From positions 67,297-131,296 of the IMG/VR virus record IMGVR_UViG_3300042906_000857: DNA of 64,000 nt; one strand, written 5' to 3'. The DNA is from a virus. How positions within the stretch are numbered: position 1 is the first letter of the stretch; every line of letters starts with the position of its first letter. Below the pieces are notes generated by a model, which worked only from the letters and a program-made list of their open reading frames with translations, made no database searches and was not told the origin of the DNA. The translations under genes were made by a program, and so were the position numbers. Below, one piece after another: positions 22,324 to 45,054 of the stretch.

Positions 22324-22396
22324 TGGTTGCGGGCCTCGGAGTCGAACCGGAACTGAGGATTATGAGCCCACTGTGATACCATTTCACCAGCCCGCT
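22324..22396 (-). tRNA. tRNA-Met(CAT), initiator-like
   Basis: Acceptor AGCGGGC/GCCCGCA with an A1:A72 mismatch, A73 and encoded CCA. The anticodon loop is CTCATAA below GGG/TCC pairs. The unpaired 1-72 position and the G-rich lower anticodon stem are initiator-tRNA features. The D-arm pair 11-24 is elongator-like, so initiator identity is a proposal. Confidence 0.85.
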
Positions 22397-22399
22397 ATA

Positions 22400-22573
22400 T
22401 TATTCTTTTACAACTTGTCTATTCATTATCTCATTAAAGGCTTCATCTTCAGCCTCGTCATCATCAATTTCTACTGGTGTTTTTCTTCTAAAGATTTCAT
22501 CAAAGTTTTTACCATATGTTTCTTGTGAAACACTATATGGTCTTGCATTTGAACCTTTACCACCATCAGACAT
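22400..22573 (-). CDS. Small conserved phage protein
   Basis: I choose the ATG at 22573, giving 57 residues (MSDGGKGSNARPYSVSQETYGKNFDEIFRRK and an acidic tail). A start eight codons upstream would lie inside groES. The GGKGSxxRPYSVSxExYxxNFDxIF pattern is common in phage genomes but unassigned. It follows the groES-like gene directly and precedes tRNA-Met. Confidence 0.75.
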   Translation of the reverse strand: MSDGGKGSNARPYSVSQETYGKNFDEIFRRKTPVEIDDDEAEDEAFNEIMNRQVVKE

Positions 22574-22574
22574 T

Positions 22575-22820
22575 TTATTCTCCGTAGATGTATGCAATAT
22601 CTTCTACTTTTACAATAAAGTAATCCTTTACTGCTGCTGCTTTACCCCAATCAGGTTGTACAACATCACCAACCGATAATTCACTTGCATCAGGACCAAC
22701 AGCAATAACTCTAGCCTTATCAGGTTCTTCGGAATGTTTTAAAATAATTCCTGAAGATGTTTGTTTGATGTTCTCAATGCGCTCAATCAAAACTTTATCG
22801 TGTAACGGCTTAATAATCAT
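22575..22820 (-). CDS. GroES-like co-chaperonin
   Basis: This 81-residue protein contains the Cpn10 start IIKPLHDKVLIERI, a short mobile loop (about 17-30, NIKQTSSGIIL) that contacts GroEL, and RVIAVGPDASELSVGDVVQPDWG. It is shorter than host GroES (about 97) and lacks the long roof loop. It is probably the functional counterpart of T4 gp31, which adapts host GroEL to fold the major capsid protein. Transcription may start at the promoter at 22987-23015. Confidence 0.88.
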   Translation of the reverse strand: MIIKPLHDKVLIERIENIKQTSSGIILKHSEEPDKARVIAVGPDASELSVGDVVQPDWGKAAAVKDYFIVKVEDIAYIYGE

Positions 22821-22834
22821 AATGTCCTAAAAAA

Positions 22835-22898
22835 TGGAGCGGGTACCTAGATTCCCACTAGGATTATGGATGGACCCACAAATGTTGGAAACACCCGC
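22835..22898 (-). pseudogene. tRNA-like element lacking a normal anticodon arm
   Basis: A perfect 7-bp acceptor (GCGGGTG/TACCCGC), T73 and CCA, plus a 5-bp T-arm (CCTAG/CTAGG) with the odd loop TGGGAAT. Only about 29 nt separate the acceptor from the T-arm. They fold as TCCA/TGGG around ACATTTG and leave no room for a 17-nt anticodon arm. Total length is 64 nt. It sits between groES and tRNA-Gly. Confidence 0.55.
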
Positions 22899-22904
22899 AT
22901 AAAC

Positions 22905-22978
22905 TGGAGCGGAATATCAGAATCGAACTGATGACTGGAGATTGGAAATCTCTAATTTTGCCATTAAACTAATTCCGC
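22905..22978 (-). tRNA. tRNA-Gly(TCC)
   Basis: Acceptor GCGGAAT/ATTCCGC, T73, CCA encoded; anticodon loop TTTCCAA on AGAGA/TCTCC; T-loop TTCGATT. It begins about 10 nt downstream of the -10 box at 22987-22992, so its promoter transcript starts almost at the tRNA 5-prime end. Confidence 0.93.
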
Positions 22979-22986
22979 ATGTATGT

Positions 22987-23015
22987 ATTATATATGAAAA
23001 AACTTGTAGAGTCAA
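22987..23015 (-). promoter_or_regulatory. Sigma70-type promoter (tRNA-Gly/groES unit)
   Basis: TTGACT (23015-23010), exactly 17 bp, TATAAT (22992-22987). It lies in the gap between tRNA-Thr(TGT) and tRNA-Gly(TCC) and would drive tRNA-Gly, the tRNA-like element, groES, the small gene and tRNA-Met. Confidence 0.8.
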
Positions 23016-23039
23016 TACTTTTTTTTAAAGTGTACCATT

Positions 23040-23113
23040 TGGTGCCCCATGACAGAATCGAACTGCCGTAACCTGATTACAAAACAGGTGTAATACCATT
23101 ATACTAATAGGGC
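23040..23113 (-). tRNA. tRNA-Thr(TGT)
   Basis: Acceptor GCCCTAT/ATGGGGC, A73, CCA; anticodon loop TTTGTAA on CCTGT/TCAGG (one T:T mismatch at the top of the loop); T-loop TTCGATT. Confidence 0.9.
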
Positions 23114-23121
23114 GAAAGAGT

Positions 23122-23196
23122 TGGAGCGGGCAGCGGGAATCGAACCCGCAACTAAACCTTGGCAAGGTCTTGTGTTACCACTAGCACCATGCCCGC
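23122..23196 (-). tRNA. tRNA-Gly(GCC)
   Basis: Acceptor starting GCGGGC and ending GCCCGC, T73, CCA; loop TTGCCAA; T-arm GCGGG/CCCGC around TTCGATT. Confidence 0.95.
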
Positions 23197-23215
23197 TTAT
23201 GTTATTATTATATAG

Positions 23216-23300
23216 TGGTGCGAGGAGCGGGACTCGAACCCGCACGCCATAAAGACAAGAGATTTTAAGTCTCTCACGGCTACCATTACGTCATCCTCGC
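23216..23300 (-). tRNA. tRNA-Leu(TAA)
   Basis: Class II tRNA with long variable arm; acceptor GCGAGGA/TCCTCGC, A73, CCA; loop CTTAAAA on AGAGA/TCTCT. Confidence 0.95.
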
Positions 23301-23307
23301 ATTGCTC

Positions 23308-23382
23308 TGGTCCGGCGTGAGAGAATCGAACTCCCATCAGAAGGGTAGAAGCCTACTGTACTATCCATTGTACTAACGCCAG
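23308..23382 (-). tRNA. tRNA-Arg(TCT)
   Basis: Acceptor CTGGCGT/ACGCCGG, A73, CCA; loop CTTCTAC on GTAGG/CCTTC; T-loop TTCGATT. It decodes AGA/AGG. Confidence 0.92.
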
Positions 23383-23387
23383 AGATT

Positions 23388-23461
23388 TGGTGCTCTTAAC
23401 AAGAATTGAACTTGTATCTCATCCTTACCAAGGACGTGTACTACCACTGTACTATAAGAGC
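23388..23461 (-). tRNA. tRNA-Thr(GGT)
   Basis: Acceptor GCTCTTA/TAAGAGC, A73, CCA; loop TTGGTAA on CGTCC/GGATG; T-loop TTCAATT. Confidence 0.94.
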
Positions 23462-23467
23462 TTAATT

Positions 23468-23552
23468 TGGTGCCCCAGGTCGGACTCGAACCGACACGCC
23501 ACAAGGACATGAGTTTCTAAGACTCACACGGCTACCATTACGTCACCGGGGC
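23468..23552 (-). tRNA. tRNA-Leu(TAG)
   Basis: Class II; acceptor GCCCCGG/CTGGGGC, A73, CCA; loop CTTAGAA on TGAGT/ACTCA; long variable arm like the Leu(TAA) gene. Confidence 0.95.
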
Positions 23553-23558
23553 ATTATT

Positions 23559-23634
23559 TGGTGCAACCTGTAGGAATCGAACCTACTTCAATGCCGCTTC
23601 AAGACACCGCTATGACCACATCAGCTAAAGTTGC
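23559..23634 (-). tRNA. tRNA-Phe(GAA)
   Basis: Acceptor GCAACTT/AGGTTGC, A73, CCA; loop TTGAAGC on GTGTC/GGCAT. T33 and the stem phase make GAA the best anticodon. A TGA reading would break the stem and lacks the class II arm expected for Ser. Confidence 0.78.
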
Positions 23635-23639
23635 ATATT

Positions 23640-23713
23640 TGGTACCTCGTTGGAGAATCGAACTCCCGTATGCACCGTGTAAGGATGCCGTTCTACCATT
23701 AAACTACCGAGGC
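23640..23713 (-). tRNA. tRNA-Val(TAC)
   Basis: Acceptor GCCTCGG/ACGAGGT with a G1:T72 wobble, A73, CCA; loop CTTACAC on GCATC/GGTGC; T-loop TTCGATT. Confidence 0.9.
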
Positions 23714-23723
23714 AAATTTACTT

Positions 23724-23797
23724 TGGGGTGACCTATGGGAGTTGAACCCATACTAAGAGATTCACAATCTCGGGTGCTGCCGCTACACTAAGGCCAC
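23724..23797 (-). tRNA. tRNA-His(GTG)
   Basis: Acceptor GTGGCCT/AGGTCAC; discriminator C73, the bacterial His identity base; CCA; loop TTGTGAA on CGAGA/TCTCT. Confidence 0.95.
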
Positions 23798-23840
23798 ACC
23801 AAAGTAAACTTTGGGATAATTTTTGGTTTATCATCACCGT

Positions 23841-24338
23841 TTAAGATTCTAACAATTCCTGTTCTGCCAAGATTCTTTTCAATCTGTCAGCGCAGAAAGA
23901 TGCTGCTGGAGCGTCAGGTTTAACCATTGGAGTCATGTTACATGTACCTTTGATATAACCGATAGCTTGTTGCACAACGCATGAGGATCCGTGCAGGTCT
24001 GATTTGTTCAAGTCCAAGTGAACTTCAACATGATAATCTTCCAACACTTCTGATAGATTTTGAAATAATTCAGAAACTTTGTAAACTTCGGTCATCAGTC
24101 TCATTGCAGGTTTACTTTTCTTGTGGTCGTAATCTAATTCACGATCCACATAACCAAAGATTTTACAACCATGACGGCCATCAATATGAACAACTACAGC
24201 AAGTGCATAATCGGCATACCAAACACCATTGATTCTAATTCTTTCAGAATCAGCACCAAGATAAACTTTAGTGTCTGGTCCTTGTTTTGCTAAATATTCT
24301 TTAACATCTTGTATGTCGAACTTACTCATATCATTCAC
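23841..24338 (-). CDS. YkuK-like (DUF458) RNase H-fold protein
   Basis: This 165-residue protein contains VYLGADSERI (25-34), the acidic first strand of an RNase H-like fold as in DUF458/YkuK. A central VEVHLDLN strand (near 104-111) has further acidic residues, followed by SSCVVQQAIGYIKG. The conserved Asp residues suggest metal binding, but nuclease activity is unproven for the family. It sits between tRNA-His and tRNA-Trp, so its mRNA is part of the tRNA transcript. Either the first ATG or the one four codons in could start it. Confidence 0.75.
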   Translation of the reverse strand: MNDMSKFDIQDVKEYLAKQGPDTKVYLGADSERIRINGVWYADYALAVVVHIDGRHGCKIFGYVDRELDYDHKKSKPAMRLMTEVYKVSELFQNLSEVLEDYHVEVHLDLNKSDLHGSSCVVQQAIGYIKGTCNMTPMVKPDAPAASFCADRLKRILAEQELLES

Positions 24339-24351
24339 CTTTCTTTAAATT

Positions 24352-24425
24352 TGGCACCCCGGGAAGGACTCGAACCTTCACAAACAGTTTTGGAGACTGT
24401 CGTGCTGCCATTACACTACCGAGAT
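24352..24425 (-). tRNA. tRNA-Trp(CCA)
   Basis: Acceptor ATCTCGG/CCGGGGT, G73 as in bacterial Trp tRNA, CCA; loop CTCCAAA on ACAGT/ACTGT. Confidence 0.94.
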
Positions 24426-24432
24426 ATAATTC

Positions 24433-24506
24433 TGGTACCCTGTAGAGGTAACGATCCTCTGTCTATCGGTTATCAGCCGATTGCTCTACCTTTAAGCTAA
24501 CGGGGT
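24433..24506 (-). tRNA. tRNA-Ile(GAT)
   Basis: Acceptor ACCCCGT/ACAGGGT with one C:A mismatch, A73, CCA; loop CTGATAA on ATCGG/CCGAT; T-loop ATCGTTA is non-canonical at its first base. Confidence 0.9.
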
Positions 24507-24511
24507 ATATA

Positions 24512-24587
24512 TGGAGGGTCATAGAGGACTCAAACCCCTAACTCAAACTTCGTAGGATTGTGTGATATTCAGTTTCACCAACGACCC
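24512..24587 (-). tRNA. tRNA-Arg(ACG)
   Basis: Acceptor GGGTCGT/ATGACCC, T73, CCA; loop CTACGAA on CAATC/GTTTG; T-arm AGGGG/CCTCT. The 3-prime end of the HNH gene (stop at 24543) runs 45 nt into this tRNA. Confidence 0.9.
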
Positions 24588-24992
24588 AAATAATTTTCCA
24601 GCGTGATGTTTTCTGTGACAATTTGAACATAAACACGCACACTTATTAACTTCATCAAGAATTTGTTTTTTACTAGCTTCCGATTTATTGGAAATATCAA
24701 ATTCTTTTTCTGCACTGTCTATGTGATGAAAGTCTAAACAAACCGGTTCAGATTCTCCACACACACAACAGCTTAAGGTTTCTTTCAATTTCAAAAACCA
24801 TTCTTTATTTTCTTTTTTATATTTTTTTATTCTATTCAAATTTGTTGAATGGTGTTTATAATAAGACTGTTTACTTTTTATTTTACGACACTCATCACAA
24901 AAAGTGATTCTTGTTCCCTTTGATTTGTTTTTGAAGGCAAATTTCTCAATTGGGAATATTTCGCCGCAACAATTACATTTTTTTGTTTCCAT
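24543..24992 (-). CDS. HNH endonuclease (probable homing/intron-less)
   Basis: This 149-residue protein has an N-terminal zinc-finger-like pair of Cys clusters (CNCC at 6-9, CDEC at 32-35). A C-terminal HNH domain follows: CCVCG (75-79), LDFHHID (86-92), CLCSNCHRKHH (120-130). It is free-standing with no intron or intein around it. Its last 15 codons lie inside tRNA-Arg(ACG), and a perfect late box TATAAATA (25022-25015) sits 23 nt upstream. Such placement fits a homing-type mobile gene that integrated at, and now overlaps, a tRNA gene. Confidence 0.85.
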   Translation of the reverse strand: METKKCNCCGEIFPIEKFAFKNKSKGTRITFCDECRKIKSKQSYYKHHSTNLNRIKKYKKENKEWFLKLKETLSCCVCGESEPVCLDFHHIDSAEKEFDISNKSEASKKQILDEVNKCACLCSNCHRKHHAGKLFGSLVKLNITQSYEV

Positions 24993-25014
24993 ATATTTTT
25001 CCTAGATACGAACT

Positions 25015-25022
25015 TATTTATA
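25015..25022 (-). promoter_or_regulatory. Late promoter box for the HNH gene
   Basis: Exact TATAAATA on the minus strand, 23 nt upstream of the HNH ATG, in an otherwise sigma70-driven tRNA island. Confidence 0.65.
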
Positions 25023-25040
25023 AAGTTTGTATCTTTTATA

Positions 25041-25116
25041 TGGTAGTAACGGTGAGACTCGAACTCACGATAAACACCGTATGAAGGTGGTGCATTAGCC
25101 ACTATGCTACGTTACC
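25041..25116 (-). tRNA. tRNA-Met(CAT) or tRNA-Ile2(CAT)
   Basis: Acceptor GGTAACG/CGTTACT (G1:T72), A73, CCA; loop TTCATAC on CCACC/GGTGT. Sequence alone cannot decide between elongator Met and a lysidine-modified Ile tRNA. Confidence 0.88.
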
Positions 25117-25245
25117 ATAGAAAAACACACTCGGCTCTCCTTACAACCTTGTTCCTGTCAATTCAGGATGAAACTGGATGAACCCAGTGGCTCCCCTTGG
25201 TTGTTTTTATCTGTCAATTCAGATTGAAAGTGTGTTTATCTATAG
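25115..25245 (-). ncRNA. Structured tRNA spacer module A1
   Basis: Near-perfect terminal stem (CATAGAAAAACACACT with AGTGTGTTTATCTATAG) starting at the 5-prime GG of tRNA-Met. Inside are an ACAACC/GGTTGT helix and hairpins ATCTG/CAGAT and CCTG/CAGG that share the loop AATTGA on the minus strand, plus ACTGG/CCAGT. It contains no ORF. Function is unknown. Confidence 0.5.
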
Positions 25246-25248
25246 CTA

Positions 25249-25376
25249 CCATATAGAAACACTCTGATAAGTGCTTGAATCTTGTGGTGACCCTACTTCA
25301 CGGTAGATTATTGCAATGGTCGACATATGCAATATGCTGTTTTTCCGCTGTAGTCACACAGAATGTTTTTATATGG
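25249..25376 (-). ncRNA. Structured tRNA spacer module A2
   Basis: An 18-bp closing stem, CCATATAGAAACACTCTG paired with CAGAATGTTTTTATATGG, has one A.C mismatch and one wobble pair in the minus-strand RNA. Inner GTGAC/GTCAC, ATTGCA/TGCAAT and CTAC/GTAG helices are possible. Its right end includes the CCA of tRNA-Ala. It lies directly next to module A1 with no tRNA between them. Confidence 0.5.
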
Positions 25377-25448
25377 TGGACCGCCGGGGAGTCGAACCCC
25401 GTACTCCTACGTGCAAGGCAGGTGTGTTCCCAAGTATACCAGCAGCCC
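25374..25448 (-). tRNA. tRNA-Ala(TGC)
   Basis: Acceptor GGGCTGC/GCGGTCC (two wobble pairs), A73, CCA; loop CTTGCAC on CCTGC/GTAGG; T-arm CGGGG/CCCCG. It lacks the usual G3:T70-only pattern but has G3:T70. Confidence 0.9.
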
Positions 25449-25498
25449 ATAATTGACAATTTATCCTATTATACGCCGTCAATAAAGGCGATTATTTT

Positions 25499-25572
25499 TG
25501 GTCTCGGTAGAAGGAATCGAACCTTCGCCACATGGCCCCAAACCACGCATGATACCATTTCACCACACCGAG
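25499..25572 (-). tRNA. tRNA-Pro(TGG)
   Basis: Acceptor CTCGGTG/TACCGAG with the C1:G72 pair typical of bacterial Pro, A73, CCA; loop TTTGGGG on CGTGG/CCATG. Confidence 0.93.
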
Positions 25573-25578
25573 AAATAT

Positions 25579-25653
25579 TGGCTCCAGAGGCAGGGATCGA
25601 ACCTACGACCAATTGATTAACAGTCAACTGCACTACCGCTGTGCTACTCTGGA
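25579..25653 (-). tRNA. tRNA-Asn(GTT)
   Basis: Acceptor TCCAGAG/CTCTGGA, G73, CCA; loop CTGTTAA on a TTGA/TCAA stem; T-loop TTCGATC. Confidence 0.94.
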
Positions 25654-26097
25654 ATATTGAATTTGTAAGCCTACGCCGCATTTATCGTAGATTTATTCAG
25701 GACTTACCGGCCGGTATAGCCTGACCTCGTCAAGATTATCTCTCGAACGATGGATATCACTTGGGATTCGTCCAGTACAGTCCCCATTACGGACCTCCGC
25801 AGTTGCCCGAGGGTGGGAGTTGAACCCATTAACCTTTTACTGCTTTGGTCCTTCGAAGAAACCTAGACAGCGTGACTTCACTTGCTGACACTTACAAAAC
25901 TAAAATGTAGTAGGCAGAGACAAAACTCTATTAGTTTGCGCTTCGATATTTAACGCCACCTTCGTGGATCCGCAACGCCATTTACTCTAGTACCAGACTA
26001 GAACTACAAAACTAAATCTGTGGCAGGTGAGGTATCTAGTTAGTCGTTCTAAAAGCAACCAACTTGCCCATTCTCCTTTTACTTTCCTTACCACAAA
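25654..26097 (-). ncRNA. 444-nt structured non-coding spacer between tRNA-Asn and tRNA-Asp
   Basis: No ORF or normal tRNA is visible. On the minus strand it is packed with hairpins: TCAGG/CCTGA enclosing the palindrome TACCGGCCGGTA (near 25695-25725), CTACG/CGTAG (25674-25692), CAGC/GCTG (near 25870-25890), and GCAGT/ACTGC enclosing TGGG-TTCAACT-CCCA (25796-25842), whose loop resembles a T-loop. The word AGTTTTGT occurs four times (near 26095, 26007, 25923, 25896). It may hold eroded tRNAs or a multi-part ncRNA. I tested tmRNA, RNase P RNA and group I intron signatures by eye and found none convincing. Confidence 0.45.
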
Positions 26098-26174
26098 ACT
26101 GGCGACTCGTGGGAGAATCGAACTCCCATCTACGGATAGACAATCCGCGATAATGACCATTATATGAACGAGCC
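26098..26174 (-). tRNA. tRNA-Asp(GTC)
   Basis: Acceptor GGCTCGT/ACGAGTC (G1:C72), G73, CCA; loop TTGTCTA on GCGGA/TCCGT; T-arm TGGGA/TCCCA. The 5-prime base lies near 26174 and the CCA near 26100. Confidence 0.92.
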
Positions 26175-26258
26175 TAAAAATTTAACGTGGAGCCTTTCAC
26201 TTACCACGATTAGTACACTAAAGTACTTGAAGGTTACACCCAACCTTTAAGAGTGATT
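26175..26258 (-). ncRNA. Three-hairpin tRNA spacer
   Basis: Three consecutive perfect hairpins on the minus strand: AAGGTT/AACCTT, AGTAC/GTACT and CGTGG/CCACG. It lies between tRNA-Asp and tRNA-Tyr and has no ORF. It probably guides processing or stabilises the precursor; function is unproven. Confidence 0.45.
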
Positions 26259-26351
26259 TGGTGGAGCAACTTGGAGTCGAACCAAGATTGTTTACCCAAA
26301 GGGATCAGATTTACAGTCTGAGGATGCACACGCCATAGCATCAATTGCTCC
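26259..26351 (-). tRNA. tRNA-Tyr(GTA)
   Basis: Class II; acceptor GGAGCAA/TTGCTCC, A73, CCA; loop CTGTAAA on CAGA/TCTG; variable arm ATCCCTTTGGGT. Confidence 0.95.
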
Positions 26352-26360
26352 AAATTCTAA

Positions 26361-26459
26361 CATATGTAAACACACTAGAGTTTTACGATAAACTACGCTC
26401 TCAAGGTTCTGCTCAAGACCCCATAGGTTTGCCTATGTTTCTAATGTGTTTGCATATGG
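26361..26459 (-). ncRNA. Structured tRNA spacer module B
   Basis: Closing stem CATATGTAAACACACTAG with CTAATGTGTTTGCATATG (wobble differences only), ending in the CCA of tRNA-Lys. An internal hairpin CATAGG/CCTATG and a GTTT/AAAC hairpin are present. It has the same closing-stem consensus as modules A2, C and D. Confidence 0.5.
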
Positions 26460-26531
26460 TAGGGGCACAGAGAATCGAACTCTGATAGACCGGTTAAAAG
26501 CCGGATATTCTAGCCGTTGAATTATACCCCC
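26457..26531 (-). tRNA. tRNA-Lys(TTT)
   Basis: Acceptor GGGGGTA/TGCCCCT, A73, CCA; loop CTTTTAA on TCCGG/CCGGT; T-arm CAGAG/CTCTG. Confidence 0.95.
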
Positions 26532-26588
26532 ATTATCTTACCACTCTTGTCACTTTCCATGACAGTCTCCTTTTTAAAAAAAAATATT

Positions 26589-26800
26589 ACCATATTAAAA
26601 TACATTAGGGTGTGATTGTCGTTCCAGAACTACATCTGGATTCTCACGGCTTCGTCTGCCGATAAGACAATCTCCACATTACTTGCCAATTTATTCTAGC
26701 GCCATCGGAAGGCTTCATGTAATCTTAGTGAGAATGATGCGGCCATCAAGTGCTCCTAAGTCACCTACTAGAATTGGTAACCTAATATATTTTAATATGG
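26589..26800 (-). ncRNA. Structured tRNA spacer module C
   Basis: A 20-bp closing stem (CCATATTAAAATACATTAGG against CCTAATATATTTTAATATGG) ends at the CCA of tRNA-Glu. Inside, GATTGTC/GACAATC encloses hairpins CGGC/GCCG and CCAGA/TCTGG, a clean three-way junction. It is 212 nt without an ORF. The 57 nt between it and tRNA-Lys (26532-26588) hold an A/T-rich run and nothing recognisable. Confidence 0.55.
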
Positions 26801-26872
26801 TACTCCGTACGAGAGTCGAACTCGTCTTATTGGGTTGAAAACCCAGTGTCCTAACCGATAGACGAACGGAGT
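26798..26872 (-). tRNA. tRNA-Glu(TTC)
   Basis: Acceptor ACTCCGT/ACGGAGT, A73, CCA; loop TTTTCAA on CTGGG/CCCAA. It is the first tRNA downstream of the tandem promoter/boxA leader. Confidence 0.94.
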
Positions 26873-26878
26873 ATATTA

Positions 26879-26936
26879 ACTCTACAAATTTTTAAAGAAC
26901 AGTGTGTATTATATACCAAATACACACTCTTGTCAA
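26879..26936 (-). promoter_or_regulatory. rRNA-type promoter P2 with boxA leader
   Basis: Perfect TTGACA (26936-26931), 17 bp, TATAAT (26913-26908) is followed by the leader TGTTCTTTAAAAATTT (within 26901-26879), which resembles the boxA antitermination element of rRNA operons. Forty-three bases (26879-26921) are repeated exactly at 28019-28061. Confidence 0.8.
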
Positions 26937-26995
26937 TACCAGTGTTGCATAATAACAACATCTGTTTTTACATTGATTTCTCAACGCAAGAATGT

Positions 26996-27023
26996 ATTAT
27001 AACAGAACTGGCCACTTTGTCAA
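26996..27023 (-). promoter_or_regulatory. Sigma70 consensus promoter P1 of the tRNA island
   Basis: TTGACA (27023-27018), 16 bp, TATAAT (27001-26996), about 90 bp upstream of P2. Together they form an rrn-like tandem P1-P2 arrangement. Confidence 0.8.
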
Positions 27024-27069
27024 CCAGTGTGTTGTTTTTTTACAACATTTGTTATTCGCAAATAAAGAA

Positions 27070-27145
27070 TGGAGTGGGTGACAGGACTCGAACCTGCATT
27101 ATCCGGACTTGCAAACCGGCACCTAGCCTTTCAGAACACACCCAC
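27070..27145 (-). tRNA. tRNA-Cys(GCA)
   Basis: Acceptor GTGGGTG/CACCCAC; T73, the Cys identity base; CCA; loop TTGCAAG on CCGGT/TCCGG. A TGC reading would need a worse stem and the wrong discriminator. Confidence 0.88.
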
Positions 27146-27146
27146 A

Positions 27147-27341
27147 TTATTTTTTCTTACGTGATATCCAACCATCATAGTTTGGATCAGTCACTTCATC
27201 AACACCAAACTTACCTACAAATTCCATTTCACCATTGGTGATAGTCACGAATGTACCGTAACCTATTGCAAACTTCATTGCATCAAGCAATGATTCAAAC
27301 TCTTGCAACGGTAATTTGTTTTCACTTATAATTTTCCACAT
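27147..27341 (-). CDS. Small conserved hypothetical in the tRNA island
   Basis: This 64-residue protein (MWKIISENKLPLQEFESLLDAMKFAIGYGTF, then a beta-hairpin, then a basic SRKKK tail) has no recognised family. The start is followed by good coding character. The stop is 1-2 nt before tRNA-Cys, so it shares the tRNA transcript. Confidence 0.6.
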   Translation of the reverse strand: MWKIISENKLPLQEFESLLDAMKFAIGYGTFVTITNGEMEFVGKFGVDEVTDPNYDGWISRKKK

Positions 27342-27359
27342 ATCATATCATCCTTAATT

Positions 27360-27436
27360 TGGTACCTCTACTCTGATTCGAACAGAGAAACTCCTCCTTT
27401 TGAGAGAGGTGACTTTACCAATTTGTCCATAGAGGC
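27360..27436 (-). tRNA. tRNA with CAA anticodon (Leu) but class I architecture
   Basis: Acceptor GCCTCTA/TAGAGGT, A73, CCA; loop CTCAAAA on CCTCT/GGAGG; T-arm CTCTG/CAGAG; only a five-base variable region (AGTTT). CAA is a Leu anticodon, yet bacterial Leu tRNAs are class II, as are the two other Leu genes here. Charging identity is uncertain. Confidence 0.85.
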
Positions 27437-27438
27437 AT

Positions 27439-27530
27439 TGGTACCAGCGTAGGGATTCGAACCCTATCAAGAACGCTAATCTGGCGCTAAAAGGCTTATA
27501 AGACCTCTCTGACTACCCAGTCTCGCTGGC
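27439..27530 (-). tRNA. Class II tRNA with TAT anticodon (Ile codon AUA), identity uncertain
   Basis: Acceptor GCCAGCG/CGCTGGT, A73, CCA; anticodon loop CTTATAA on GAGGT/GCCTT; long variable arm AGCGC/GCGTT with loop CAGATTA; short D-arm. TAT is an Ile anticodon but the long arm and A73 are Leu-like. It may be a Leu(TAA) derivative changed at position 36. Confidence 0.75.
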
Positions 27531-27535
27531 ATATT

Positions 27536-27624
27536 TGGCGGAGAGTGTGGGAATCGAACCCACTCACCATATCACTACGGCGACAGATTAGCAATCTGCT
27601 GCATTACCATCCTGCCCACTCTCC
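27536..27624 (-). tRNA. tRNA-Ser(GCT)
   Basis: Class II; acceptor GGAGAGT/ACTCTCC, G73, CCA; loop TTGCTAA on CAGA/TCTG. The upstream 58-codon gene ends inside it, with its TAA in the anticodon loop. Confidence 0.94.
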
Positions 27625-27764
27625 AATTGTTCAATTCTATTTGCTGCTTCTTCTAATAAATCAGCAATTCTATCTGGTGCATTTTCTTGCACCGATTTTC
27701 TTGTAGTAATTTGCCTACGAATTTCAGCACGTTTTCTTAATCGATAAATTAAATCTTCTTTCAT
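27588..27764 (-). CDS. Small helical protein ending inside tRNA-Ser
   Basis: I start at the ATG at 27764 (MKEDLIYRLRKRAEIRRQITTRKSVQEN, 58 residues), which has AAGGAAT as ribosome site. The longer upstream start would read through tRNA-Ser(TGA). The predicted helix and the RIADLLEEAANRIEQLE motif recur in phage genomes without a function. Its last 12 codons and stop are the 5-prime half of tRNA-Ser(GCT). Confidence 0.65.
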   Translation of the reverse strand: MKEDLIYRLRKRAEIRRQITTRKSVQENAPDRIADLLEEAANRIEQLESGQDGNAADC

Positions 27765-27779
27765 AAGAATTCCTTTTAA

Positions 27780-27871
27780 TGGCGGAAGACGGAGGAGTCG
27801 AACCCCATCCAATTTCTCAGAACCTGGTTTTCAAGGCCAGTCGCAGGACCAACCCCGCTGCATCATCTTCC
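27780..27871 (-). tRNA. tRNA-Ser(TGA)
   Basis: Class II; acceptor GGAAGAT/GTCTTCC, G73, CCA; loop CTTGAAA on CTGGC/ACCAG; long variable arm. Confidence 0.94.
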
Positions 27872-27940
27872 ATATAGAAACACACTAGCATGAACCTGTT
27901 GTCAATTATCCCTGCGGGGAACTAATATGTTTTTATATGG
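27870..27940 (-). ncRNA. Structured tRNA spacer module D
   Basis: A 19-bp closing stem (CCATATAGAAACACACTAG with CTAATATGTTTTTATATGG) joins the CC of tRNA-Gln's CCA to the GG of tRNA-Ser. Inside is a TCCC/GGGA hairpin. At 71 nt it is the smallest module of the family. Confidence 0.55.
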
Positions 27941-28011
27941 CACCCGGAGTAAGAATCGAACTTACAATAGCAGAGTCAAAGTCTGTTGTGTTGCCACTAC
28001 ACTATCCGGGA
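27938..28011 (-). tRNA. tRNA-Gln(TTG)
   Basis: Acceptor TCCCGGA/TCCGGGT with an open T1:T72, G73, CCA; loop CTTTGAC on ACAGA/TCTGC. A weak first pair and G73 fit Gln identity. It is the first tRNA after the promoter/boxA leader at 28019-28076. Confidence 0.92.
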
Positions 28012-28018
28012 GTATTTT

Positions 28019-28076
28019 ACTCTACAAATTTTTAAAGAACAGTGTGTATTATATACCAAATTCGATGACTTGGCAA
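28019..28076 (-). promoter_or_regulatory. rRNA-type promoter with boxA leader, second copy
   Basis: TTGCCA (28076-28071), 17 bp, TATAAT (28053-28048), then the same leader with TGTTCTTTAAAAATTT. Its 28019-28061 portion is identical to 26879-26921. It drives tRNA-Gln and following tRNAs. Confidence 0.8.
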
Positions 28077-28104
28077 TACGTGTGTTGTTTTTATGCAACA
28101 CCAA

Positions 28105-28137
28105 ACAAAAAACCCTTAGAGGTTGAATTCTAAGGGT
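28105..28137 (-). terminator. Rho-independent terminator
   Basis: Perfect 9-bp hairpin ACCCTTAGA/TCTAAGGGT (28137-28112) followed by a T6 run in the minus-strand direction. It separates the ncRNA candidate from the tRNA promoter just downstream. Confidence 0.85.
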
Positions 28138-28313
28138 CTTGTGTTTGGAATCTTTTCTAAGAACTTTTTATCTTTAGTCCTCATTCTCTACACAAAACCC
28201 GGTCGGCCATGACGCATCGGCACAATTAATACTTGTGCGATACTCCGATTGGGACGTAAAGGGTTTATGGGATATGAGGGACACTTTTTTTCTTTCGAGT
28301 TATATTTAACGAT
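28107..28313 (-). ncRNA. Candidate stand-alone ~205-nt ncRNA
   Basis: A consensus-like promoter (28348-28320) and a strong terminator (28137-28107) frame a stretch with no ORF of note. The RNA can fold as a long interrupted rod: CCTCAT/ATGAGG, then AAACCC/GGGTTT or CCC/GGG, then TCGG/CCGA, capped by GCACAA/TTGTGC with a GTATTAA loop. A 6S-RNA-like mimic is one possible reading, but no family is recognised. Confidence 0.6.
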
Positions 28314-28319
28314 GTTTGT

Positions 28320-28348
28320 ATTATATAGTAAACTTTATACCTTGGCAA
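28320..28348 (-). promoter_or_regulatory. Promoter of the ncRNA candidate
   Basis: TTGCCA (28348-28343), 17 bp, TATAAT (28325-28320); expected start near 28313. Confidence 0.75.
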
Positions 28349-28368
28349 GCGGTTTCACAAAAAATATT

Positions 28369-28881
28369 TTAATTTATTTTTTTCCACTTGATAGGTTTTG
28401 GTACCAAAGGTGCGGTCGGATTTTGAAATTCACTGAAAACTTCCCATAGATGTTCTGCTGTTACATACTTTGTAAGCAATCCAATCTCACGGCCGTAAGC
28501 ATCTATTTCCCATGGATGTGACCAGTATTCAACCTCATCGGAGTTTATTTTTTTACCACGCCATGTCGATAGTTGTTCATTGGTTTCACCCTCGATATAC
28601 TGTTTGATGTGAACCATCTCATGTGCTAACGTGGCCAAGATACCTCTGGCACCTAGACCTGGATGAACCTCAATTAAGAATTCTCTTGGTTGTTTTCTGG
28701 AGTTGTAATCTTCTATGCTACAAAATCCATATTCGTTTATCTTACTGTCGAAACGTACAGTAGTGAAACAATTGTTACGTATTCTTGTATTGGTAATCAA
28801 TTCTTTGGCGTAGAACTGGATAGACCTCTCAACGAAAGGCTTGAATGATTCCTCGGGACAGTTTAGAATCTTCAAATTCAT
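28369..28881 (-). CDS. SprT-like zinc metallopeptidase
   Basis: This 170-residue protein contains LAHEMVHIKQ with the HExxH zinc site HEMVH at 87-91. A third ligand candidate lies in WSHPWEIDAYGRE about 40 residues on. The fold and spacing resemble SprT/Spartan-type proteases, which in cells act on protein-DNA crosslinks. A phage substrate is unknown. It is a single-domain protein without a signal peptide. A CATAAATA late-like box lies about 45 nt upstream. Confidence 0.75.
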   Translation of the reverse strand: MNLKILNCPEESFKPFVERSIQFYAKELITNTRIRNNCFTTVRFDSKINEYGFCSIEDYNSRKQPREFLIEVHPGLGARGILATLAHEMVHIKQYIEGETNEQLSTWRGKKINSDEVEYWSHPWEIDAYGREIGLLTKYVTAEHLWEVFSEFQNPTAPLVPKPIKWKKIN

Positions 28882-28937
28882 GCGAACTCCAGTTTATTTT
28901 TTAACCGATAATACTCACTCCTTAGCTATTTATGGAC

Positions 28938-29366
28938 TTACATCTTTTCCACTTTGATACCAGATTTCTCAAGGAAGTTTAATCCTGCCATGTCCCTATA
29001 ACTATTCCGATAGTATACAGAAGATATACCGCTTTGGTATATAAGTTTGGCACAGTCAAGACAAGGAGCGTGAGTAATAAATATATTAGCATCAAGACCG
29101 CTTTCGCTTGATTTGGCCAGCTTCGCAATTGCATTAGTTTCAGCATGAAGAACCTCAGGTTTAGTTTTCAACGTTACGGTATCATCGCTGTGTTGAATAG
29201 TATCTTCACAGTTATTATCCCATCCAGACGGCATTCCGTTATATCCAATTGATATAATTCTGTCATCCTTAACAACAATTGCACCAACGTGTAACCTTTT
29301 GGCAGAGGACAATTCAGCAAAGGTTTCTGCAACCTTCATAAAAGTATCAAGAAATTTCTGTTTCAT
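28938..29366 (-). CDS. cd: Deoxycytidylate (dCMP) deaminase
   Basis: This 142-residue member of the cytidine-deaminase superfamily has catalytic zinc motifs HAETNAI (74-80) and PCLDC (101-105), together with GYNGMPSGWDNNCED typical of dCMP deaminases. It converts dCMP to dUMP for thymidylate synthesis. It lacks any obvious insertion relative to T4 Cd (193) and is nearer to the bacterial/ComE length. It precedes the SprT-like gene and follows a tRNA(CAT) in the same direction. Confidence 0.92.
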   Translation of the reverse strand: MKQKFLDTFMKVAETFAELSSAKRLHVGAIVVKDDRIISIGYNGMPSGWDNNCEDTIQHSDDTVTLKTKPEVLHAETNAIAKLAKSSESGLDANIFITHAPCLDCAKLIYQSGISSVYYRNSYRDMAGLNFLEKSGIKVEKM

Positions 29367-29379
29367 TTTGTTTTATAAA

Positions 29380-29453
29380 TGGTGGGCCGACTTGGAATTG
29401 AACCAAGACTCCGCCGATTATGAGTCGGAAGCTTTACCATTAAGCTATCGGCC
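29380..29453 (-). tRNA. tRNA(CAT), Met or Ile2
   Basis: Acceptor GGGCCGA/TCGGCCC, A73, CCA; loop CTCATAA on TCCGA/TCGGC; T-loop TTCAATT. This is the third CAT tRNA. With one initiator-like gene at 22324, this and 25041 are candidates for elongator Met and AUA-reading Ile2. Confidence 0.92.
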
Positions 29454-29460
29454 CCCTTGT

Positions 29461-29670
29461 TTATTTAATGTATTCTAAACCGTCTTTACGCATCCAGTGT
29501 AACTGTTGTGTCAATTCATTGGATGGAAAAAACTTAGACACACCAATGAACTCCACACCTTCAATTTCTTTTGAAGGCCAGTGTTTGAATGTATAGTAAA
29601 CGTCCAGTGTAGATTTTACCCGCACTTTTATTGGACTTGGTGTTTTGATGTTTCGGTTTTCCAATTTCAT
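29461..29670 (-). CDS. Small hypothetical protein
   Basis: This 69-residue beta-rich basic protein (VRVKSTLDVYYTFKHWPSKEIEGVEFIGVSKFFPS, near 16-50) has no known motif. It lies directly downstream of a consensus promoter (29708-29680) and upstream of tRNA(CAT) and the deaminase, so it leads that unit. Confidence 0.65.
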   Translation of the reverse strand: MKLENRNIKTPSPIKVRVKSTLDVYYTFKHWPSKEIEGVEFIGVSKFFPSNELTQQLHWMRKDGLEYIK

Positions 29671-29790: not shown

Positions 29791-29957
29791 GTTGGCCATC
29801 CATGTAAACGTTGTAGGTTTATTTGTTCAAACCTGCGTTGAAGATAGTCAATGTCTTCCACAGTCTTAGGATTGTTAGAAACAATGTATGCTTCTAACGC
29901 TGATCCGTAAGTCTGTGGTTTACCAAAGTTCCGTAAGAACTTGGATAAGAATTTCAT
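29787..29957 (-). CDS. 56-residue small ORF after hsp20
   Basis: It starts at 29957, its ATG overlapping the hsp20 TGA (ATGA), and encodes a basic N-terminus (KFLSKFLRNFGKPQTYGSAL) and a helical AYIVSNNPKTVEDIDYLQRR segment. Three consecutive coupled genes (hsp20, this, the micro-ORF) end at the terminator at 29690. Function is unknown. Confidence 0.6.
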   Translation of the reverse strand: MKFLSKFLRNFGKPQTYGSALEAYIVSNNPKTVEDIDYLQRRFEQINLQRLHGWPT

Positions 29958-30409
29958 TTCTCATCCTTTTCTTTCACAACGATTTTCTTGATTGCATCTT
30001 GGCCTTTGACCATGTTTGCTAACCAAATCTTTAACATTCCATTGGTCATTTCAGCATTTTCAATTTCAATTTTGTCATTGAGTTTGAATTCACGGCTGAA
30101 ATTACGATTGGCGATACCTTTGAAGATAAAGTTTTTATCGTCTAGTTCTTCATCTTGAGTATTACCTTTCACAACCAATTTGTTACCTTCTAGTGTAACT
30201 TCAATATCAGATTTGCCGAAGCCAGCAACAGCGATTTCGATAACGAACTTGTTATCTTTGATCTGCTTGATATTGTATGGAGGGTAAGAAACGGTCTTGG
30301 CGACTGTCTTTGCCATGTCTTGTAGGTCTTTGAACATATCTTCATAACCTACTGCGAATGGATCAAACTTGTGGAAGTCGAATAAACCAGGTAGTTGTAG
30401 CTTTGTCAT
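29954..30409 (-). CDS. hsp20: Small heat-shock protein (Hsp20/IbpA family)
   Basis: This 151-residue protein has an alpha-crystallin domain at about 45-145, including NKFVIEIAVAGFGKSDIEVTLEGNKLVVKG and the family's AxxxNGML signature as AEMTNGMLKI. It is an ATP-independent holdase, common in aquatic T4-like phages, and probably protects virion or replication proteins. It has its own consensus promoter and a roughly 145-nt structured leader that hides the ribosome site, so heat-controlled translation is likely. Confidence 0.95.
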   Translation of the reverse strand: MTKLQLPGLFDFHKFDPFAVGYEDMFKDLQDMAKTVAKTVSYPPYNIKQIKDNKFVIEIAVAGFGKSDIEVTLEGNKLVVKGNTQDEELDDKNFIFKGIANRNFSREFKLNDKIEIENAEMTNGMLKIWLANMVKGQDAIKKIVVKEKDEK

Positions 30410-30554
30410 AATTGCTCCTTAATAAGCGAGTTTTTAAAATTGCAACCCCGAAGGCATTGCATAAAATCCAGGTTACCTTATCTGGTCCGAACTTTCGTGC
30501 CGGAGGTGTAATTACACGGACGCCTTTTACCGTAGCATCTAACGGCCCTAAGGT
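30410..30554 (-). promoter_or_regulatory. ROSE-like RNA thermometer in the hsp20 5'UTR
   Basis: The last hairpin pairs CUC(G)CUU with the Shine-Dalgarno AAGGAG across an AUU loop, with a single bulged G. It contains UCGCU, matching the UYGCU signature of ROSE thermometers. Upstream are a UUCG-capped hairpin closed by UGCAA/UUGCA, a CCAG/CTGG hairpin and the palindrome GTGTAATTACAC. Confidence 0.7.
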
Positions 30555-30560
30555 GGGCCT

Positions 30561-30589
30561 ATTATATCTTTATTTATATTGGGTGTCAA
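30561..30589 (-). promoter_or_regulatory. hsp20 promoter with embedded late box
   Basis: TTGACA (30589-30584), 17 bp, TATAAT (30566-30561). The spacer contains an exact TATAAATA (30578-30571), so early and late recognition sites are superimposed. The -35 overlaps the regA stop codon. Confidence 0.75.
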
Positions 30590-30993
30590 CCGTTTTGTGG
30601 TTTTTTACCAATATTATATTTTGGTACCAATTGCCAGTCTGATTTTTCTTTATGTGAAATGATCTTCACTTGAGATAGAAAGATTGGTACTGGAACTTCA
30701 GTTTGTTTTTTGTCAACAATCTTAACTAAGCCCCAATCTTCCAACAGATTTACAATAGCATTTCTGCGTGATAGGTCATTCTCAGTTAAATCAGTTTCTT
30801 TACCATCAAGAGCAAATAACTCTTTGAAGTGAACTATGTAATATTTACCACGTTTGTGTAGAATATGGCAAGATTGATACAGTGTATTGTCCTTCTTGGA
30901 AGCAACACCGATACGTGTTAACGTTTCACGTACCTTCAAAAAATCATCACTTTCTTCTAATAATACCTCAACTAGATCCTTAATTTCAATCAT
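30586..30993 (-). CDS. regA: RegA translational repressor
   Basis: This 135-residue protein is clearly T4 RegA-like: FLKVRETLTRIGVASKKDNTLYQSCHILHKRGKYYIVHFKEL, then LLEDWGLVKIV and WQLVPKYNIG. It binds ribosome sites of early phage mRNAs and represses their translation. It sits at its usual place after gp62, overlapping that gene's stop by 4 nt. Slightly longer than T4 RegA (122). Confidence 0.95.
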   Translation of the reverse strand: MIEIKDLVEVLLEESDDFLKVRETLTRIGVASKKDNTLYQSCHILHKRGKYYIVHFKELFALDGKETDLTENDLSRRNAIVNLLEDWGLVKIVDKKQTEVPVPIFLSQVKIISHKEKSDWQLVPKYNIGKKPQNG

Positions 30994-44457: not shown

Positions 44458-44958
44458 GTATTTGTATGATTGATACCTAAATGTGGCTCTTGCGGTGATA
44501 AGGTTGTCCGCAGATTGGGTAGTGTCAAACTGAATATCTCCGATGGTCAAAGGAAATACATTTAGATATTGTATTCTTATAATAGGATTATTCAGTCCAC
44601 TTAATATGGTCAGTGTGGCGTCAGAAAAGTGTTTGATAGATTGCAACTCTCTACTACCGTCTCTGGATTCAAATCCATCTGGATCAGCCATAGACAAGAA
44701 CCAATTATATAAGTTCTTCCATGATTGCAATTCTTCATCAATTAGAAATTCTATTTCCAGTGGAGAATAGGTTAACTTGGTACCTGGAGAATACATGTCC
44801 AAAAATGGCGTAGCCCTATTAACTTCACCTAGAGAAACTCCAGGTAAATTAACCGATTGACAAAAATATTGTACAGTTTGAATTCTATTAAACGTCAACA
44901 AGAATTTTGTTGGTTGTAGTAAATTAGTATTCTGAGGACTTCTAGTAATTGCAGTCAT
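44446..44958 (-). CDS. Tail-tube-like (gp19-superfamily) structural protein
   Basis: This 170-residue protein contains QPTKFLLTFNRIQTVQYFCQSVNLPGVSLG and IEFLIDEELQSWKNLYNWF, a topology shared with phage tail tube and tube-initiator proteins. The true gp19 at 50930 has comparable motifs (AQLPGSTIG). It may be a tube initiator, neck or baseplate-hub protein. A CATAAATA late-like box is upstream. It lies after the gp23 terminator. Confidence 0.7.
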   Translation of the reverse strand: MTAITRSPQNTNLLQPTKFLLTFNRIQTVQYFCQSVNLPGVSLGEVNRATPFLDMYSPGTKLTYSPLEIEFLIDEELQSWKNLYNWFLSMADPDGFESRDGSRELQSIKHFSDATLTILSGLNNPIIRIQYLNVFPLTIGDIQFDTTQSADNLITARATFRYQSYKYLTA

Positions 44959-44987
44959 TTTATCTCCTATATTACTATTTATGAGCC

Positions 44988-45017
44988 AAAAAAAAGGACC
45001 ACCGAAGTGGTCCTTTT
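44988..45017 (-). terminator. Terminator after gp23
   Basis: GGACCAC-TTCG-GTGGTCC hairpin followed by T8 on the minus strand, immediately downstream of the major capsid gene. Confidence 0.9.
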
Positions 45018-45054
45018 AAAACTGTCACTCTTAACGGTGACTTTTTTTCAACGA

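What the first reader, a model, noticed from the sequence alone, without database searches (positions are those of the whole stretch)
30410..30589. Phage hsp20 leader looks like a ROSE RNA thermometer
The 145-nt leader ends in a hairpin in which CUC(G)CUU pairs with AAGGAG, with a bulged G and the UCGCU (UYGCU) signature that ROSE elements use against the Shine-Dalgarno. Upstream hairpins, including one with a UUCG tetraloop, give the multi-hairpin plan of ROSE elements. Heat-controlled translation of a phage chaperone would be a new use of this element.
Basis: partly seen in the sequence, partly recalled or inferred. Interest (0 to 1): 0.85.

Follow-up and report, generated by a model that had tools for sequence, protein, structure and literature searches.

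The report
ROSE-like RNA thermometers in aquatic phages
The start of a viral chaperone gene is preceded by an RNA hairpin pair of the kind bacteria use to switch heat-shock genes on with warmth, and the same element sits before the chaperone gene of nearly every related lake and ocean phage examined, including well-known cyanophages where we found no report of it.

Summary
In a 172-kb T4-like viral record, the regA–hsp20 intergenic leader ends in two hairpins. Hairpin II pairs CUC(G)CUU with the Shine-Dalgarno AAGGAG; hairpin I has a C(UUCG)G loop and its own bulged G. Rfam ROSE_3 is the only relevant family hit (27.6 bits, below its cut-off of 43; E 8.6e-5 in the whole record). All 29 distinct close relatives keep CUYGCU…AGGAG. 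A covariance model trained on 23 of them (window excluded) ranks the hsp20 leader first genome-wide in 8 of 8 distant non-Vibrio phages (S-PM2, P-RSM1, MED4-213, HTVC008M, Melnitz and others) and hits nearly all cyanophage-type hsp20 loci in IMG/VR. Hairpin I covaries strongly. Marine alphaproteobacterial hsp20 genes carry the same element, so phages probably took gene and leader together, more than once. The 5' half of the window leader is not ROSE: it is an unannotated pseudoknotted module, one of several swapped between promoter and ROSE core. Temperature response itself is untested. Every ROSE-bearing phage Hsp20 checked keeps the arginine that IbpA needs to repress its own mRNA, so the element may sense protein aggregation as well as heat. 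No earlier report was found in the open-access library.

The parts
29954..30409 (-). hsp20 (small heat shock protein, 151 aa), the regulated gene; R102 and Y42 align with IbpA R93 and Y34
   Evidence: PF00011 E 3e-16; alignments
30407..30409 (-). hsp20 start codon AUG, outside hairpin II
30415..30420 (-). Shine-Dalgarno AAGGAG, 3' arm of hairpin II
   Evidence: invariant in relatives
30424..30430 (-). anti-SD CUC(G)CUU with extra G at 30427; UCGCU signature 30425-30429; 5' arm of hairpin II
30441..30461 (-). hairpin I UGCAAU(G)CC-UUCG-GGGUUGCA with bulged G at 30455
   Evidence: fold; covariation; matches ROSE_3 hairpin I
30404..30463 (-). complete ROSE-like element (Rfam ROSE_3 match; own model R1 hits 30404-30465 at 63.8 bits)
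30467..30559 (-). separate pseudoknotted RNA module (P1 hairpin, putative H-type pseudoknot, covarying H-type pseudoknot, P4 hairpin); not part of ROSE, absent in many relatives
   Evidence: alignment and covariation; no Rfam match
30561..30589 (-). sigma-70-type promoter TTGACA-N17-TATAAT (12 of 12), overlapping the regA stop codon; TATAAATA (T4-late-like) at 30571-30578 inside the spacer
   Evidence: (TATAAATA itself is not enriched in the window)
30586..30993 (-). regA (T4-like translational repressor), upstream neighbour; regA-hsp20 order shared with S-PM2 and S-CRM01
   Evidence: PF01818

Best explanation
The leader carries a short, two-hairpin ROSE-like translational control element. At low temperature hairpin II pairs the SD with CUC(G)CUU and keeps ribosomes off hsp20; warming melts this weak, bulged hairpin while the stable hairpin I stays folded, and Hsp20 is made. 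The element belongs to the hsp20 gene of a broad set of T4-like aquatic phages and of their bacterial source lineages. Shown here: presence, position, conservation, covariation of hairpin I, conservation of SD pairing. Inferred: repression at low temperature, melting on warming, and additional autorepression by Hsp20 itself (as for E. coli IbpA) so that heat-denatured or unassembled proteins also switch it on.
For: ROSE_3 is the only relevant Rfam hit. All 29 distinct close leaders keep CUYGCU...AGGAG while loop and spacer vary. Hairpin I covaries: 31 double-change cells in 23 leaders, score 0.301 vs 0.100 shuffled and at most 0.081 slid; 213 double-change cells in 94 phage leaders, 0.402 vs 0.123 (alignment fitted to the model). 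Hairpin II pairs in 98.5% of cells, varying only as U(U/C)GCU and at the inner pair, apart from single cells. Model R1, trained without the window or any distant phage, ranks the hsp20 leader first in the whole genomes of P-RSM1, S-PRM1, HTVC008M, MED4-213, Melnitz-3, HTVC103P, S-CRM01 and S-PM2, and hits 78 of 79 intact cyanophage-type loci, nearly all MED4-213-, HTVC008M- and S-PM2-type loci and 71 of 77 bacterial or MAG hsp20 loci, mostly marine alphaproteobacteria. Predicted hairpin II stability is marginal (T at dG=0 about 47 C here, versus 58 and 68 C for Pseudomonas and enterobacterial ROSE hairpins), i.e. weaker than elements known to switch between 25 and 42 C (PMC3669281).
Against: No experiment. 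The Rfam gathering score is not reached by any phage copy tested. Hairpin II is too invariant to show compensatory changes at its core pairs. Simple partition-function opening curves show no clear melting for most copies, though they also show almost none for the bacterial control leaders. In the window sequence an alternative SD-masking pairing is about 1 kcal/mol better. One cyanophage (L223) has lost the anti-SD and another (L299) has a degenerate one, so the control is dispensable in places.
Confidence: 0.8

Rival explanations
1. The leader is mainly a binding site for the phage's own Hsp20: free Hsp20 holds the ROSE fold closed, and aggregated host or virion proteins titrate it away, so the element senses folding or assembly stress in late infection, with temperature secondary. 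This can coexist with the thermometer.
For: E. coli IbpA represses its own mRNA through the 5' UTR, needing R93, with aromatic Y34 and R97/K98 contributing (PMC10474464). In the sampled phage Hsp20s downstream of ROSE-type leaders the R93 position is Arg in 341 of 341 rows (redundant sample) and Y34 is Tyr/Phe, whereas the two Vibrio phages without a detectable ROSE leader have Ser at R93. hsp20 has been proposed to help capsid maturation (PMC3037559).
Against: The K98 position is mostly not basic in phages, and K98A abolishes repression in IbpA. R93 is also common in alpha- and gammaproteobacterial sHsps generally. The proteins were collected by a motif search that favours ROSE loci, and the ROSE-less group is one lineage.
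Confidence: 0.4
2. The hairpins only set a low constitutive translation rate or protect the mRNA; no regulated melting takes place.
For: Folding energies are only modestly better than shuffles and predicted opening curves are mostly flat.
Against: The specific bulged G and U(U/C)GCU, both hairpins and the sHsp context are kept over phages whose Hsp20s share only 33-38% identity with the window protein, which a generic weak-translation hairpin would not need.
Confidence: 0.15
3. The leader is a target of the neighbouring RegA translational repressor, which could use the SD/AUG region.
For: regA lies directly upstream here and in S-PM2 and S-CRM01. That T4 RegA acts near start codons is my own knowledge.
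Against: The element is equally present before bacterial hsp20 genes, which have no RegA. No RegA-site test was made.
Confidence: 0.05

Closest known systems
Short ROSE-like RNA thermometers of Pseudomonas ibpA (Rfam ROSE_3, RF02523; PMC3669281)
   Same: About 60 nt, two hairpins, stable hairpin I with AUGCC...GGGU and a bulged G, hairpin II with U(U/C)GCU against the SD, AUG unpaired, upstream of an sHsp gene.
   Different: Carried by lytic-type T4-like phages; below the Rfam cut-off; hairpin II shorter and weaker; often preceded by extra pseudoknotted modules.
ROSE (RF00435) and ROSE_2 (RF01832) of rhizobia and enterobacteria
   Same: Same anti-SD logic and sHsp target.
   Different: Those have three to four hairpins; phage copies have two, and matches to these models are weak or absent (L006 ROSE_2 22.7 bits).
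Phage RNA thermometers: lambda cIII, SPbeta blyA fourU, Caudoviricetes sigma-70 (PMC10586365, PMC11182007)
   Same: Temperature control of phage translation.
   Different: None is ROSE-like or on a chaperone gene; here the element is shared by a large set of phages.
Cyanobacterial hsp17 thermometer (PMC4477652)
   Same: Thermometer before an sHsp gene in a cyanobacterium.
   Different: [quoted passage not shown] cyanophages use the two-hairpin ROSE plan instead.
IbpA autorepression through its 5' UTR (PMC10474464)
   Same: sHsp with the critical Arg downstream of a ROSE-type leader.
   Different: Not tested for any phage protein; the K98 equivalent is not conserved.

Membership tests
Rfam ROSE_3 (RF02523) | Covariance-model score at or above the gathering score of 43 bits | tested here: not met
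   27.6 bits in the window; best phage copy 35.1 bits
ROSE-like RNA thermometers (functional class) | U(U/C)GCU motif paired imperfectly with the SD in the 3' hairpin | tested here: met
   definition in PMC3669281
ROSE-like RNA thermometers (functional class) | Unpaired (bulged) G opposite the SD | tested here: inconclusive
   Conserved G and register supported comparatively, but energy slightly favours GCUU/GAGC in the window itself
ROSE-like RNA thermometers (functional class) | At least one stable upstream hairpin before the SD hairpin | tested here: met
   Hairpin I fold and strong covariation
ROSE-like RNA thermometers (functional class) | Directly upstream of a small heat shock gene | tested here: met
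ROSE-like RNA thermometers (functional class) | Translation rises with temperature through melting of the SD hairpin | not testable with these tools
   Only marginal predicted stability; no experiment
fourU thermometer | Four uridines paired with the SD | tested here: not met
   The segment facing the SD is CUCGCUU
Cyanobacterial hsp17-type thermometer | Single hairpin with the start codon in the stem | tested here: not met
   Two hairpins; start codon outside hairpin II

The most novel reading that the evidence does not exclude
A large group of T4-like aquatic phages carries an sHsp-plus-ROSE unit that works as a dual sensor: RNA melting reads temperature and phage Hsp20 autorepression reads protein aggregation or virion-assembly stress. 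In some lineages a further layer of swappable, previously undescribed tandem pseudoknots at the mRNA 5' end tunes stability or adds another input.
Probability: 0.3. Interest if true: 0.9.

Novelty: new variant of a known kind. Interest (0 to 1): 0.78.

Why it matters
hsp20 is a core gene of T4-like cyanophages whose role is unsettled (capsid scaffold or heat protection; PMC3037559, PMC7674155). A conserved thermometer in front of it says translation is held back until a stress signal comes, which points to a stress role and gives a direct test. It extends ROSE elements from bacteria to abundant marine and freshwater phages, where only a handful of RNA thermometers of any type are reported, and it offers a route by which water temperature could act on infection.

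Tried and rejected
(1) Chance hairpin: rejected by conservation, covariation and genome-wide specificity. (2) Other R1 hits (before a tail-tube-like gene in the window at 44953–45018 and in G001/G002; others in W04, W06, W10): inspected; terminator-like hairpins followed by an SD, at most 25.2 bits, mostly without U(U/C)GCU. (3) Whole-leader MFE and SD-opening curves: uninformative also for bacterial controls. (4) Rfam for the upstream module: nothing credible. (5) Vibrio phages PWH3a-P1 and VpB-34: Hsp20 present, no ROSE leader found. (6) pmoC next to hsp20: AmoC not found in this record, but the search had no positive control. (7) Cyanobacterial host genomes could not be reached, so whether marine picocyanobacteria have ROSE themselves is open. 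(8) TATAAATA as a late promoter: suggestive position only; the motif is not enriched in the window.

Full report
What is there. The window is part of a 172,157-base viral record from a T4-like phage: gp45, gp44, gp62 and regA precede hsp20 on the minus strand, and gp44 is about 60% identical to that of Prochlorococcus phage P-HM1. Between regA and hsp20 lie a perfect TTGACA-N17-TATAAT promoter (30589–30561) and a leader of about 145 nt. Its last 60 nt form two hairpins: hairpin I (30461–30441, C(UUCG)G loop, bulged G30455) and hairpin II (30430–30415), in which CUC(G)CUU faces the SD AAGGAG; the AUG is outside.

Is it more than chance? Rfam ROSE_3 is the only relevant family that matches: 27.6 bits, E 0.0013 against all families in 601 nt and E 8.6e-5 as the only ROSE_3 hit in the whole record. 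The score is below the curated cut-off (43), so Rfam annotation would miss it. Of 33 SD-bearing ORF leaders in the window, only this one has the CUYGCU…RGGA signature. Folding energy alone would not have convinced (z about -1.5).

Close relatives. Seventy IMG/VR loci encode a related Hsp20. Their 29 distinct leader cores all keep CU(C/U)GCU…AGGAG while loop length, spacer and flanks vary. In 23 well-aligned leaders hairpin I shows 31 cells changed on both sides, covariation 0.301 against 0.100 in shuffles (0 of 500) and at most 0.081 when slid. Core pairs of hairpin II hardly vary, except CG to UG, exactly the U(U/C)GCU choice that defines ROSE-like elements (PMC3669281).

Distant relatives. 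A covariance model (R1) built from those 23 leaders, without the window and without any reference phage, was run on whole phage records. The hsp20 leader is the best hit in P-RSM1, S-PRM1, HTVC008M, MED4-213, Melnitz-3, HTVC103P, S-CRM01 and S-PM2, whose Hsp20s share only 33–38% identity with the window's. HTVC008M is the weakest (21.3 bits). No inspected non-hsp20 hit exceeds 25.2 bits; they are terminator-like hairpins followed by an SD. In IMG/VR, 78 of 79 intact cyanophage-type loci are hit directly before hsp20 (the exception L223 has lost the anti-SD), as are 76 of the 80 MED4-213-type loci over their full length (of the other four, three are cut at contig ends and L299 has a degenerate anti-SD). 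All 15 HTVC008M-type loci and both S-PM2-type loci are hit too, the weakest near 16 bits. On 94 distinct phage leaders hairpin I has 213 double-change cells (67 in shuffles) and hairpin II is paired in 98.5% of cells (this alignment leans towards the model).

Source. The same element stands before hsp20 in 71 of 77 bacterial or MAG loci, mostly SAR11 and other marine alphaproteobacteria; a few of these matches are weak or cut at contig ends. In an Hsp20 tree the cyanophages form one clade (100/99), the window group another (100/96), and pelagiphage HTVC008M falls within the SAR11 sequences (96/83); at least three phage/bacterium changes are forced. Gene and leader therefore probably moved together, more than once. 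Two Vibrio phages have an Hsp20 but no detectable element.

How it most likely works. By analogy with the short Pseudomonas elements, where hairpin II melts between 25 and 42 C and hairpin I stays folded (PMC3669281), hairpin II should block the SD when cool and open on warming. Its predicted stability is marginal: dG about -3.1 kcal/mol at 20 C, zero at 47 C, against 58 and 68 C for the Pseudomonas and enterobacterial hairpins by the same crude calculation; UUGCU versions reach zero at 21–29 C. That would suit cooler waters, but nearest-neighbour energies ignore non-canonical pairs, and SD-opening curves were uninformative even for the bacterial controls. In the window itself an alternative pairing, GCUU/GAGC, is about 1 kcal/mol better. 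It also masks the SD, but needs a C after GGAG, present in 37 of 88 parsed leaders.

A second input. E. coli IbpA represses its own translation by binding this type of leader, and R93 is essential (PMC10474464). The aligned residue is Arg in all 341 phage sequences sampled and Ser in the two Vibrio phages without the element; an aromatic residue at Y34 is kept, K98 is not. So the phage element may also read protein aggregation. This is a correlation only.

The rest of the leader. Positions 30559–30467 are not ROSE. They match a separate module found in 43 IMG/VR contigs with clear covariation: an H-type pseudoknot and two further base-base covariations visible across 17 sequences (for a few sequences the script reported another complementary pair and the pseudoknot was read by eye). 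A second module, a 5' hairpin AGUCCCAUCGGGAUGGGA followed by an H-type pseudoknot with covarying stems, occurs in 80 contigs, and every leader type listed there ends in a ROSE-type signature. Many relatives have neither module and go straight from promoter to ROSE. Rfam has no credible match. Function unknown; mRNA 5'-end protection is my guess.

Literature. Phage RNA thermometers on record are lambda cIII, SPbeta blyA and a sigma-70 candidate (PMC10586365, PMC11182007). Searches for ROSE or thermometers together with phage, cyanophage and hsp20 found no report; only an open-access library was searched. hsp20 itself is a known cyanophage core gene with suggested roles in capsid maturation or host heat protection (PMC3037559, PMC7674155).

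Verdict. A genuine ROSE-like element by sequence, structure and context, new for phages as far as could be searched, widespread, and formally outside the Rfam family threshold. Thermosensing is likely but unproven.

Noticed in passing
window 30467-30559 (-); L009, L015, L051, L366, L376, L387, L398, L402: About 93-nt RNA module (P1 hairpin, putative H-type pseudoknot, covarying H-type pseudoknot, P4 hairpin) upstream of ROSE; also before other genes without ROSE (L366, L387). No Rfam match.
   Followed up: partly
L006, L009, L030, L037, L038, L372, L428, L430 and others (80 contigs): 5' hairpin AGUCCCAUCGGGAUGGGA followed by an H-type pseudoknot with covarying stems and an A-rich linker, placed at the presumed mRNA start before the ROSE core.
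   Followed up: partly
L435 10010-10234; also L428, L391, L392, L403: A small phasin-like ORF (69-74 aa) sits between the ROSE leader and, where traced (L435), hsp20, so ROSE controls a two-gene unit there. The phasin call is by eye, no family search.
   Followed up: partly
L113, L119, L125, L142, L148, L162: Actinobacterial (Planktophila-type) hsp20 leaders contain GGUAUCUCGC...AAGGAG without an obvious hairpin I: a possible ROSE-like anti-SD in Gram-positives, where such thermometers are said to be absent.
   Followed up: no
L223 1110-1215; L299 500-620: Cyanophage leaders that keep hairpin I but have lost (L223) or degraded (L299) the anti-SD: natural loss variants useful as controls.
   Followed up: no
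window 29708-29680 (-): A second perfect TTGACA-N17-TATAAT promoter before a 69-aa ORF (29461-29670), next to a terminator-like hairpin.
   Followed up: no
window 22327-29454 (-): Cluster of 25 tRNA genes downstream of hsp20.
   Followed up: no
L091: The bacterial-labelled hsp20 nearest to the window (48%) comes from a 132-kb 'Bacteroidetes' MAG contig and clusters with the window phages; probably a phage contig.
   Followed up: no
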